Source: Pseudomonadota bacterium (GTDB taxonomy: Bacteria; Pseudomonadota; Alphaproteobacteria; Rhizobiales; Beijerinckiaceae). From it: a DNA stretch of 35,863 nucleotides. The position numbers were made by a program, and so were the translations under genes. The stretch lies in NCBI GenBank assembly GCA_021777795.1, contig JAJYDD010000003.1, positions 1-35,863 of the forward strand. Reading direction: 5' to 3'. Positions 1 to 3,295 of this stretch are shown here, one piece after another. Below the pieces are notes generated by a model. That model was not told the DNA's origin. It saw only the letters and a program-made list of their open reading frames with translations, and did not search any database. Numbering within the stretch: the stretch's first letter is position 1; the number at the start of each line of letters is the position of its first letter.

Positions 1-2794
1 AAAGCGCGGTCGTGGTGAGCGCCTGAATGTTCGTCGAGCTCATAGTGTTGAGCTCGCCGGCGCTGAGGCCTGCGACCTCCCTGTTCGTCAGCGCCGAGAC
101 CTGAGTGGTCGAGAGCGCGTTGAGCGTAGTCGAGGCGAGAGCGCCGAGCTGGGCGCTGGTCAACTTGGCCGTGGCGACCGCCGCGAGGTTGGTCGTCGTC
201 AGGCCGCCGAACTGGGTCGCCGACAGCGCGTCAAGCTGCGAGGTGCTGAGGACGGCGACCTGCGCCGTGGTCAATGCATTGAGCGCCGTCGAGGTCAGCG
301 CGCCCATGACGGCCGATGTGACGCCGGCCAGCGCCGAGGTGCTCAGCGCCTGAATATTGGTGGACGTCAGTCCGTTGACCTCGGTCGAGGTCAGGCCCGA
401 GGTCTGCTTGCTGGTCAGCGCCGCCATCTGCGTCGTCGTCAGGGCGTTGGCCGCCGTCGTCGTCAGGCCGCCGAGTTGCGTGCTCGACAGTCTCGCCGCG
501 TTGAGCGCGTTGAGCGTGGTGGTGGCGATCGTCGTCAGTTGCGCGGTCGTCAGACCCTCGACTTGATTTGTCGTCAAAGCGCCGAGCTGGGTCGACGTCA
601 TGTAGCCGAGCGCCGTCGTCGTCGCGCCGGCCAGAGCGGTCGTGCCAAGACCGGAAAGCGCGGTCGTGGTGAGCGCCTGAATGTTCGTCGAGCTCATAGT
701 GTTGAGCTCGCCGGCGCTGAGGCCTGCGACCTCCCTGTTCGTCAGCGCCGAGACCTGAGTGGTCGAGAGCGCGTTGAGCGTGGTCGAGGCGAGAGCGCCG
801 AGCTGGGCCGAGGTGAAGCGTGAGACGTTGAGTGCGCCAAGCTGAGCGGTCGTCAGGCCGGCGAGCTGCGTTGAGGATAGGCCGTCGGCCTGCGCCGTGG
901 TCAGCGCCGCGACCTGGGTCGTGGTCAAGCCGTTGAGCGCCGTCGTCGTTAGCGACGAGACCACCGTTGAGCCGACGCCGGCCAGCGCCGATGTGGTCAA
1001 CGCCTGAAGATTCGTCGTCGTCAGCGCATTAAGCTCGGTCGCGTTGAGCCCGGAAGTCTGCCTGCTGGTGAATGAGGCGAATTGCGTCGAGGTCAGGGCG
1101 TTGGCGGCGGTGGTGGTCAGATTGGCGACCTGCGTGGACGACAGAGAGGCGGCGTTGATGGCGTTGAGAACAGTGGTGGCGACGGCGTTGAGCTGGGCGG
1201 CGCCCAGCCCCTGAACCTGTGCCGCGCTGAGGCCGCCGAGTTGAGTCGCACTGAGATTGGCGAGCGCGGTCGTTGTCGCCCCGGAAAGAGCGGCTGTGGT
1301 GATGCCGGTCAGCGCCGAGGTTCCGATCGCTTGCAGATTGGTCGAGGAGAGCCCGGTGATGTCGGTTGACGACAGCGCCACTGTCTGTCTGCTGGTCAGC
1401 GCGGCGATCTGCGTGGTGGTCAGTGCGTTGAGCGTCGTCGTCGTCAACCCGGGAATCTGGGTGGTCGAGAGCTTGGCCGCGTTCAGCTCGTTGAGCACGG
1501 TGGTGCTTGCCGTATTGAGCTGCGACGTCGTCAGGCTCTGCACCTGCAAAGTAGTCAGCGCCGCGAGCTGGTTCGAGGTCAGGTTGGCGAGCGCTGTCGT
1601 CGTCGCGCCGGCCAGCGTGTTGGCGGCGAGGCCCGAAACGGCGGTCGTGCTCAGCGCCTGCGCGTTGGTTGACGTCAGCGCATTCAGATCGGTCGAGGAG
1701 ATCGCCGAAGCCTGGGCGGCGGTGATGGCGCCGAACTGCGTCGTCGTCAGATTACCGAGCGCTGTCGTGGTGAGACCGGAGATTTGCGAGGTCGAGAGGC
1801 TCGCCGCGTTGAGGGCGTTCAGCACGGCTGTGGTGGCGCTGTTGAGCTGCGCCGTCGTCAGACCCTTGGCCTGCGCCGAGGTGAGCGCGCCGAGCTGGGT
1901 GGCGGCTAGATTGCCGAGCGCGGTCGTCGTCAGCCCGGAGAGCGCCGTGCTGGTGACGCCGGTGAGCGCCGAGTTGGTCAGCGCATGGGCGCTGGTCGAA
2001 GTCAGAGCATTGATCTCGGTGGCCGACAGCGCAGCGGCCTGCCTGCTCGTCAGCGTGCCGAGCTGCGTCGTCGTCAGACTGCCAAGCGTGGTGGTGGTGA
2101 GGGCGCCGACTTGCGTCGCCGACAGATTGGACGCCTTGAGCGCGTTGACAACGATGACCGAAGCCGTGTTGAGCTGAGTGGACGTGAGCGCCTGCGCCTG
2201 CGCGAGGGTGAGATCGCCAAGCTCGGTGGTGGAGAAATTGCCGAGCGCCGTCGTCGTCAGGCCGGAAATCGTCGTGGTGGTGAGGCCCGTGTCGGCGGTG
2301 GTGGAGAGCGCCTGAAGGTTGGACGTGGTCATCGCATTGACGTCGGCGGCGCTGAGCGCGGTGACGGCGGCGCTGGTCAGCGCAGCGAGCTGCGAGGTCG
2401 TGAAGTTGTTGAGCGCCGTGGTCGTCAGGCCGGCGATCTGCGTCGAGGAGAGGCTCTGCGCGTTGAGCGCGTTGACGACCGTGGTTGAGCCGGTGTTGAG
2501 CTGCGTCGCCGTCAAGCCCTTGATCTGAAGAGTTGTCAACTCGCCGAGCTGCGATGTCGAGAAATTGCCGAGCGTCGTCGTCGTCAATTGCCCGATATTG
2601 GTTGACGTGATGCCGGCGATCGCGGTCTTGGTGAGCGCCTGGAGATTGGTGGTGGATAGGTTCGCCAGCGCGCCGGTGGAGAGAGCGGAGGCCTGGGCGC
2701 TGGTGAACTCGGCGATCTGACCGGTGGTCAGCGCATTGAGCGTCGTCGTCGTCAGGCCCGAAACCTGGGTGGTGGTGAGATTGGCGACGTTGAG
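1..2794 (-). repeat. Hierarchical in-frame tandem array: 24-bp units (8 aa) x13 plus a 15-bp spacer = 327-bp super-repeat
   Basis: Five-residue spacers LNVAN, LNAQS, LKASN, LNAAS, LNAAK, INAAS, LNVSR, LNAAR, VATAK start (plus coordinates) at 2780, 2453, 2126, 1799, 1472, 1145, 818, 491, 164, i.e. every 327 bp, with 13 octads between each pair. Confidence 0.9.
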
Positions 2795-3295
2795 GGCGCC
2801 CAGCGTCGTCGTCGAGCTCGTGTTGAGCTGCGTCGTCGTCAGCGACTTCACCTGCGCGGCGTTGAGGCGGGCGAGCAGCGTGGCGCCGAGATTGCCGAGC
2901 GTCGTCGTCGTCATGGCCGAGACCTGGGCGGTGGTGAAGCCGCCGAGTTGGCCCGCCGAGAGACCCTGCAACTCCGTGCTGGTCAGCGCGTTGACGTTCG
3001 TCGTCGAAAGCGAGCCGAGCACCGTCGCGGTCATGGCGTCGGCCTGGGTGTTGGCGAGCGCCAGTATCATCGCCATGGATAGCGACGGCCCGGCCTGACT
3101 GGAAAAGCCTGTGATCTGGCTCGTCGTCAGCGCGGATTCTGCGGTGGTGGTCAGCGCGCTGAGCTGGGAGCCGCTGAGTGCTGCGACCTGCGAGACCGTC
3201 AATGCGGCGACGTCGGTGGTCTTCAGCGTCGCCATCGTCGTAGTCGACAGATTGGCGATCTGCGCATTCGACAGCGAACTAATGAATGACGTCAT
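1..3295 (-). CDS. Giant octapeptide-repeat protein, C-terminus beyond left edge (partial)
   Basis: Reverse-strand translation from ATG at 3295 (preceded by GGGGG, RBS-like) reads MTSFISSLSNAQIANLSTTTMATLKTTDVAALTVSQVAALSGSQLSALTTTAESALTTSQITG... with no stop to position 2 (1098 codons). It is composed of octads L[ST]xxQ[VIL]xx. Absent from the ORF track, probably because it has no stop inside the window. Confidence 0.9.
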   Translation of the reverse strand, partial: MTSFISSLSNAQIANLSTTTMATLKTTDVAALTVSQVAALSGSQLSALTTTAESALTTSQITGFSSQAGPSLSMAMILALANTQADAMTATVLGSLSTTNVNALTSTELQGLSAGQLGGFTTAQVSAMTTTTLGNLGATLLARLNAAQVKSLTTTQLNTSSTTTLGALNVANLTTTQVSGLTTTTLNALTTGQIAEFTSAQASALSTGALANLSTTNLQALTKTAIAGITSTNIGQLTTTTLGNFSTSQLGELTTLQIKGLTATQLNTGSTTVVNALNAQSLSSTQIAGLTTTALNNFTTSQLAALTSAAVTALSAADVNAMTTSNLQALSTTADTGLTTTTISGLTTTALGNFSTTELGDLTLAQAQALTSTQLNTASVIVVNALKASNLSATQVGALTTTTLGSLTTTQLGTLTSRQAAALSATEINALTSTSAHALTNSALTGVTSTALSGLTTTALGNLAATQLGALTSAQAKGLTTAQLNSATTAVLNALNAASLSTSQISGLTTTALGNLTTTQFGAITAAQASAISSTDLNALTSTNAQALSTTAVSGLAANTLAGATTTALANLTSNQLAALTTLQVQSLTTSQLNTASTTVLNELNAAKLSTTQIPGLTTTTLNALTTTQIAALTSRQTVALSSTDITGLSSTNLQAIGTSALTGITTAALSGATTTALANLSATQLGGLSAAQVQGLGAAQLNAVATTVLNAINAASLSSTQVANLTTTAANALTSTQFASFTSRQTSGLNATELNALTTTNLQALTTSALAGVGSTVVSSLTTTALNGLTTTQVAALTTAQADGLSSTQLAGLTTAQLGALNVSRFTSAQLGALASTTLNALSTTQVSALTNREVAGLSAGELNTMSSTNIQALTTTALSGLGTTALAGATTTALGYMTSTQLGALTTNQVEGLTTAQLTTIATTTLNALNAARLSSTQLGGLTTTAANALTTTQMAALTSKQTSGLTSTEVNGLTSTNIQALSTSALAGVTSAVMGALTSTALNALTTAQVAVLSTSQLDALSATQFGGLTTTNLAAVATAKLTSAQLGALASTTLNALSTTQVSALTNREVAGLSAGELNTMSSTNIQALTTTAL

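What the first reader, a model, noticed from the sequence alone, without database searches (positions are those of the whole stretch)
1..3295. Giant octapeptide-repeat protein missed by the ORF track
The minus strand is open from ATG 3295 to the window edge (1098 codons). About 130 octads L-[ST]-[TSA]-[TSA]-[QATDE]-[VIL]-x-[AGN] follow one another almost without interruption. Examples: LTTTQVSG LTTTTLNA LTTGQIAE. Hydrophobic residues at octad positions 1 and 6, very few charged residues, almost no Pro and no Cys suggest a regular solenoid or a stalk-like surface protein. The [ST]-x-x-Q at each octad start also resembles a helix N-cap, so a short-helix solenoid is an alternative to a beta-solenoid. 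No signal peptide is visible: MTSFISSLSNAQIANLS runs straight into repeats. If exported, a type I C-terminal signal (outside the window) would be expected. I cannot assign it to a named family.
Basis: partly seen in the sequence, partly recalled or inferred. Interest (0 to 1): 0.85.

Follow-up and report, generated by a model that had tools for sequence, protein, structure and literature searches.

The report
Giant helical-repeat protein with sugar-transferase partner
This is the first half of a roughly 1,960-residue bacterial protein built almost entirely from an eight-residue repeat predicted to stack into a rod of tiny helices; in many related bacteria its gene sits directly before a gene for an enzyme that attaches sugars to proteins, so it is probably a sugar-coated surface protein of a kind that nobody has yet studied.

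Summary
The minus strand is open from ATG 3295 to the window edge, and 130 octads plus one pentad per ~109 residues fill it. The window edge is a contig end. The gene continues on contig C46, whose start overlaps the window end by 34 bp; the in-frame join gives 1,962 residues with the 109-residue phase kept.

In 22 of 47 surveyed genomes rich in this repeat, GT41 lies within 0.7 kb downstream on the same strand, and most of these enzymes form one clade. A UDP-xylose synthase gene lies near the pair in about 12 genomes, and type I secretion genes in five.

My reading: the giant Ser/Thr-rich rod is O-glycosylated in the cytoplasm by its partner GT41, perhaps with xylose, then exported by type I secretion to the surface. 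The gene pairing is shown; modification, sugar and export are inferred.

The parts
2..3295 (-). N-terminal 1,098 codons of the ALTTAQ octad-repeat protein (ATG at 3295); continues on contig C46 (L011 1-2628 +) to a total of about 1,962 residues
579..781 (-). internal copy of the exact repeat of about 203 bp whose second copy spans the window edge (window 127 to 1, then C46 35-110)
1..127 (-). second copy of that repeat, cut by the contig end; its last 34 bp are the first 34 bp of contig C46
2453..2467 (-). example of the pentad (LNAQS, residues 277-281) that interrupts the octads once per 109-residue super-repeat
1472..1486 (-). pentad LNAAK, residues 604-608
491..505 (-). pentad LNAAR, residues 931-935
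3296..3834 (.). AT-rich intergenic stretch upstream of the repeat gene, shared with the divergent SecB-containing ORF (3835-4764 +); presumed promoter region
   Evidence: GC drops to 0.586; sequence; only one weak promoter-like match

Best explanation
The ORF is the N-terminal half of a giant rod-like protein made end to end of ALTTAQ (PF20080) octads. Each octad forms one short helix, with S/T at position 2 as N-cap and L1 and V/I/L6 in the core; every 13 octads a pentad is added. The gene directly downstream encodes a soluble TPR + GT41 (OGT-like) glycosyltransferase. Most likely the TPR part of that enzyme recognises the rod in the cytoplasm and the GT41 part adds single sugars to Ser/Thr on the exposed helix starts (octad positions 3 and 4), with UDP-xylose as the best guess for the donor in the main clade. 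The uncleaved protein is then exported by a type I secretion system and stays on or near the cell surface as a glycosylated coat, stalk or adhesin. Shown: repeat anatomy, family, confident predicted fold, conserved gene pair, clade of the paired enzymes, retained catalytic-site residues. Inferred: that the enzyme modifies this protein, the sugar, the sites, the export route and the surface role.
For: Family: PF20080 E 8e-84; full-length relatives of 1,432-2,936 residues are repeats from end to end. Fold: AlphaFold2 models of the N-terminal 300 and C-terminal 251 residues, pLDDT 89.0 and 90.5, helices of 4-6 residues per octad, no strands; profile match to a solved octad-repeat protein, HeliScrew4 9zem, over 109 residues, E 1e-23. 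Gene pair: GT41 109 bp downstream here, and within 0.7 kb downstream on the same strand in 22 of 47 genomes with at least four PF20080 matches, across at least nine families; about 6e-47 if 21 of 47 were drawn at 6 GT41 genes per 4,000, genomes taken as independent. GT41 is the only neighbour kept in most loci. 28 of 29 paired GT41s fall in one clade (SH-aLRT 98); the single 'elsewhere' enzyme in it, L159, proved to have an unlisted ALTTAQ gene beside it. Enzyme: XcOGT 2jlb E 3e-82, with the His, Lys and HTT positions of the active site kept in the alignment (residue roles from general knowledge). Donor: UDP-glucuronate decarboxylase near the pair in 10 loci, 60-79% identical to the one annotated so in Pseudoroseomonas, and UXS1 structures match two of them at E 1e-123 and 1e-129; UDP-glucose dehydrogenase in four loci. 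Export: ABC/HlyD/TolC genes beside the cassette in Niveispirillum (G187), G270, G1046, Pseudoroseomonas and a Pseudomonas plasmid. Precedent: FlmG of Caulobacter binds flagellins with its TPR domain and glycosylates them in the cytoplasm (PMC7591256).
Against: Eight of the 47 genomes (G001, G004, G163, G661, G678, G722, G762, G951) have no GT41 at all and G071 has none nearby, so the repeat does not need the enzyme. T1SS genes flank only a minority of loci and not this one; the own genome has type I HlyD elsewhere. UDP-xylose synthase is not linked here (it is on contigs C516 and C134), and Rhizobium and Pseudomonas relatives carry glf or gmd instead, so the sugar may differ by lineage. S/T at octad position 4 is higher in paired proteins (0.60 against 0.35, p 0.001) but lineage-confounded: at least eight paired proteins are low there. 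No export signal is recognised.
Confidence: 0.6

Rival explanations
1. The repeat protein is a surface or secreted scaffold, but the paired GT41 modifies something else (for example flagellin or another surface protein) and the two genes are kept together only because both belong to a surface regulon.
For: GT41 enzymes have other substrates (FlmG); eight repeat-rich genomes lack GT41; in Rhodovastum and Pseudorhizobium flagellar genes lie near the cassette.
Against: In most loci GT41 is the only conserved neighbour and the genes are 7-180 bp apart on one strand; paired enzymes form their own clade apart from other GT41s of the same genomes; the repeat is a third Ser/Thr.
Confidence: 0.2
2. The protein stays in the cytoplasm as a scaffold or storage-like filament, and the TPR-GT41 acts on it as an intracellular regulatory O-glycosylation, like eukaryotic OGT.
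For: No signal peptide, no recognised C-terminal export domain, soluble GT41; no T1SS next to the gene in most genomes.
Against: T1SS genes flank the cassette in five loci; PF20080 repeats elsewhere are joined to RTX, filamentous-haemagglutinin, Ig-like and protease domains typical of exported proteins; very few charged residues in a huge soluble protein.
Confidence: 0.15
3. The rod is a beta-solenoid or LRR-like protein, as names such as 'beta strand repeat-containing protein' in the databases suggest.
For: LRR models and LRR structures score weakly through shared leucine spacing.
Against: Two AlphaFold2 models show only helices at pLDDT 89-90; the best solved-sequence match is HeliScrew4, not an LRR.
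Confidence: 0.04

Closest known systems
ALTTAQ repeat, Pfam PF20080
   Same: Octad L-[ST]-x-x-Q-[VIL]-x-x in long tandem arrays; E 8e-84
   Different: Pfam entry is a repeat without a function; here the whole protein is repeat, with a 109-residue super-period and a GT41 partner
HMW1/HMW1C of Haemophilus (GT41 glycosylating a large adhesin before export)
   Same: Large surface-type protein glycosylated in the cytoplasm by a GT41 enzyme encoded nearby (works like; HMW1C from general knowledge)
   Different: HMW1 is a beta-helix exported by two-partner secretion and N-glucosylated; no TPS domain here, the enzyme is OGT-like with TPR repeats, and T1SS is the linked exporter
FlmG-flagellin system of Caulobacter (PMC7591256)
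   Same: TPR domain for substrate recognition plus GT domain, cytoplasmic O-glycosylation before export
   Different: Substrate is flagellin, donor is pseudaminic acid; here the partner is a giant repeat protein and UDP-xylose synthase is the linked sugar gene
Bacterial and eukaryotic OGT (XcOGT 2jlb, human OGT), GT41
   Same: Fold and catalytic positions of the partner enzyme, E 3e-82
   Different: Only a short TPR stretch; paired enzymes form a separate clade among the GT41s compared
HeliScrew4 (PDB 9zem)
   Same: Tandem LTPEQ[IV]AA octads in the same register over 109 residues, E 1e-23
   Different: 120-residue solved protein with P-E at positions 3-4, where this family has Ser/Thr; no paper found in the library, and 9zem did not appear among the fold-search matches

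Membership tests
PF20080 ALTTAQ repeat | Score above Pfam's gathering cut-off | tested here: met
   275 bits against a cut-off of 26.4, 31 stretches
Glyco_transf_41 (PF13844), partner gene on C46 | Score above cut-off and OGT active-site positions kept | tested here: met
   252 bits against 25; His, Lys and HTT aligned with XcOGT
Glyco_transf_41 (PF13844), partner gene on C46 | Transfers a sugar to protein Ser/Thr | not testable with these tools
   needs an enzyme assay
RTX adhesin | HemolysinCabind nonapeptide repeats near the C-terminus | tested here: not met
   no PF00353 in the window half; the C-terminal half ends ...SAQITAYQALVG in octads; none in three full-length relatives
Type I secretion substrate | Exporter genes next to the substrate gene | tested here: inconclusive
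   absent beside this gene; present in five related loci
HMW1-type two-partner-secretion adhesin | N-terminal haemagglutination/TPS domain (PF05860) | tested here: not met
   not
Leucine-rich repeat | One short beta strand per repeat | tested here: not met
   helices only in both models

The most novel reading that the evidence does not exclude
A widespread, undescribed class of bacterial surface glycoproteins: giant short-helix rods with hundreds of Ser/Thr, densely O-xylosylated by a dedicated GT41 clade fed by a linked UDP-xylose synthase and exported by type I secretion, in effect a bacterial mucin- or proteoglycan-like coat and the first GT41 enzymes that use UDP-xylose.
Probability: 0.25. 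Interest if true: 0.88.

Novelty: new variant of a known kind. Interest (0 to 1): 0.62.

Why it matters
PF20080 proteins of 1,000-5,000 residues recur across Pseudomonadota, and databases call them hypothetical or 'beta strand repeat' proteins. The conserved pair gives the family its first functional hypothesis, and the bacterial OGT-like enzymes a probable natural substrate. If the sugar is xylose, it would add a donor to GT41. The octad rod is also a simple, regular, very long solenoid of interest for protein design.

Tried and rejected
Beta-solenoid and LRR readings were rejected on two AlphaFold2 models. RTX and TPS membership were tested and not met. Fold search against PDB found only weak, poorly superposed matches (mesothelin, armadillo; TM 0.2-0.3), and the viral library nothing useful. 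The first Ser/Thr position test (0.66 against 0.31 at octad position 4, p 3e-4) weakened when more loci were added (0.60 against 0.35, p 0.001), with many paired exceptions, so it is kept as a hint only. UDP-xylose synthase presence by genome (23 of 27 paired, 15 of 32 others, p 0.003) is real but confounded by relatedness; physical linkage is the stronger fact. NCBIfam gave no family and Rfam no RNA. Literature searches for ALTTAQ, PF20080 and HeliScrew found nothing in the open-licence library, which is not proof of absence elsewhere. One search failed on coordinates, so several ordinary window genes at 15.5-26.5 kb were not annotated.

Full report
WHAT IS THERE. The minus strand of the window is open from ATG 3295 to the edge, 1,098 codons. 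A tiling by dynamic programming finds 130 octads with L at position 1 (77%), S/T at positions 2 (84%), 3 (75%) and 4 (67%), Q at 5 (42%) and L/V/I at 6 (80%), interrupted by nine pentads, mostly LNAA[SKR]; 13 octads plus one pentad make the 109-residue super-repeat that dominates the autocorrelation. Pfam assigns it to PF20080, the ALTTAQ repeat, at E 8e-84.

COMPLETING THE GENE. The window is the whole of contig C123 of a fragmented draft genome (4.42 Mb, 624 contigs, 80% complete). The second PF20080 locus of that genome is the start of contig C46, 875 codons ending ...LTVPQVQVMNSAQITAYQALVG-stop. The last 34 bp of the gene on C123 equal the first 34 bp of C46. Joined there, the frame is kept (5,889 nt, one stop at the end), an exact repeat of about 203 bp appears that explains why the assembler stopped, and the pentad spacing across the joint is 109 residues. 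I take about 1,962 residues as the best estimate; extra whole units between the contigs cannot be excluded. The protein is 34% Ser+Thr and 3% charged, with no Cys, no Trp and 5 Pro. There is no signal peptide by eye and no other domain. Full-length relatives of 1,432, 2,280 and 2,936 residues are likewise repeats from end to end.

FOLD. AlphaFold2 with alignments of 14 N-terminal and 17 C-terminal segments gives pLDDT 89.0 (pTM 0.80) and 90.5 (pTM 0.77): one helix of about 4-6 residues per octad, no strands. A profile of the N-terminal alignment matches HeliScrew4 (PDB 9zem), a solved protein of LTPEQ[IV]AA octads, over 109 residues at E 1e-23; no paper on it is in the library. Foldseek finds only loosely similar helical solenoids.

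THE PARTNER GENE. The gene 109 bp downstream on C46 encodes 682 residues with TPR repeats and Glyco_transf_41, closest among solved structures to XcOGT (E 3e-82), with the His, Lys and HTT active-site positions kept. I surveyed PF20080 in relatives, class, order and phylum samples and GT41 in the genomes that had it, then fetched the loci. Of 47 genomes with at least four PF20080 matches, 22 have GT41 within 0.7 kb downstream on the same strand, 21 of them as the next gene 7-174 bp away; in G014 a small ORF lies between. Four more (G018, G1111, G187, G270) have it within about 4 kb, and G006, with a repeat gene cut by a contig end, has it just upstream. L030, from an unrelated search, also shows the pair. 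Eight of the 47 genomes have no GT41 at all. In a tree of 49 GT41s, 28 of 29 paired enzymes group together (SH-aLRT 98) with one apparently unpaired enzyme, L159, whose neighbourhood then showed an ALTTAQ gene that the survey had not listed. On plasmids, the pair also occurs in Pseudomonas, Rhodovastum, Rhizobium and Pseudorhizobium, and GT41 lies about 6 kb from the repeat genes in Pseudoroseomonas.

SUGAR AND EXPORT GENES. After GT41, the commonest neighbour is a UDP-glucuronate decarboxylase (UDP-xylose synthase) in ten loci: 60-79% identical to the gene so annotated in Pseudoroseomonas, with human UXS1 structures matching two of them at E 1e-123 and 1e-129. UDP-glucose dehydrogenase, the step before, is present in four loci. 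With G425 and G018 added from the genome scan, about 12 paired genomes have the synthase within 10 kb, which chance would hardly give. The own genome has two such genes on other contigs. Rhizobium and Pseudorhizobium loci carry UDP-galactopyranose mutase, and the Pseudomonas plasmid GDP-mannose dehydratase, so the donor may vary. Type I secretion genes flank the cassette in G187 (a contig of the same length as plasmid NZ_CP025613 of Niveispirillum cyanobacteriorum), G270, G1046, Pseudoroseomonas and the Pseudomonas plasmid. Elsewhere, PF20080 repeats occur in proteins with RTX, filamentous-haemagglutinin, Ig-like and protease domains, which points outside the cell.

MECHANISM. The best-supported account is a giant, stiff, Ser/Thr-rich rod that its partner GT41 O-glycosylates in the cytoplasm before type I export. 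FlmG of Caulobacter is a direct precedent for TPR-guided cytoplasmic O-glycosylation (PMC7591256), and HMW1C for a GT41 acting on a large adhesin (general knowledge). Shown: anatomy, family, predicted fold, conserved pair, clade, active-site conservation. Inferred: modification, donor, sites, export and surface role. The position-4 Ser/Thr excess in paired proteins is only a hint, because lineages are confounded and several paired proteins lack it. In all paired proteins measured, position 3 or 4 is Ser/Thr-rich, whereas four unpaired ones lack both; this was seen after the fact.

VERDICT. The family is known but functionless; the glycosyltransferase pairing, which I could not find described, makes it a new variant of the known theme 'GT41 glycosylates a large surface protein'.

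Noticed in passing
window 3380-3580: AT-rich stretch upstream of the repeat gene with several TGACGTA / TTACGTAA-like words, possibly operator sites; not tested against chance.
   Followed up: no
L171 (NZ_CP135972.1 1-17503): A Pseudomonas plasmid from a human blood isolate carries a cassette of TolC, HlyD and type I ABC genes, gmd, an 8-kb repeat gene and TPR-GT41.
   Followed up: partly
L041 12914-14317, L172 5884-7137, L174 17640-18926: A gene with the PF12248 (Methyltransf_FA) domain directly follows GT41 in three loci, two of them with UDP-galactopyranose mutase next to it; a second possible accessory of the system.
   Followed up: no
L036, L037, L038 (G014): One genome has three ALTTAQ genes, two in tandem before GT41 and one beside an RTX glycosyl hydrolase 16 and a type I-like ABC gene.
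   Followed up: partly
L146 and L147 (G187, G270): Two GT41 genes in a row, one of the main paired clade and one of a sister clade, in a cluster with UDP-xylose synthase and type I secretion genes: perhaps two-step glycosylation.
   Followed up: no
window 3835-4764: A 309-residue ORF divergent from the repeat gene has the SecB chaperone domain only in its C-terminal half (159-297); the true start is probably internal.
   Followed up: no
public databases: Relatives are named 'beta strand repeat-containing protein' or 'heme utilization protein', which the helical model does not support.
   Followed up: partly
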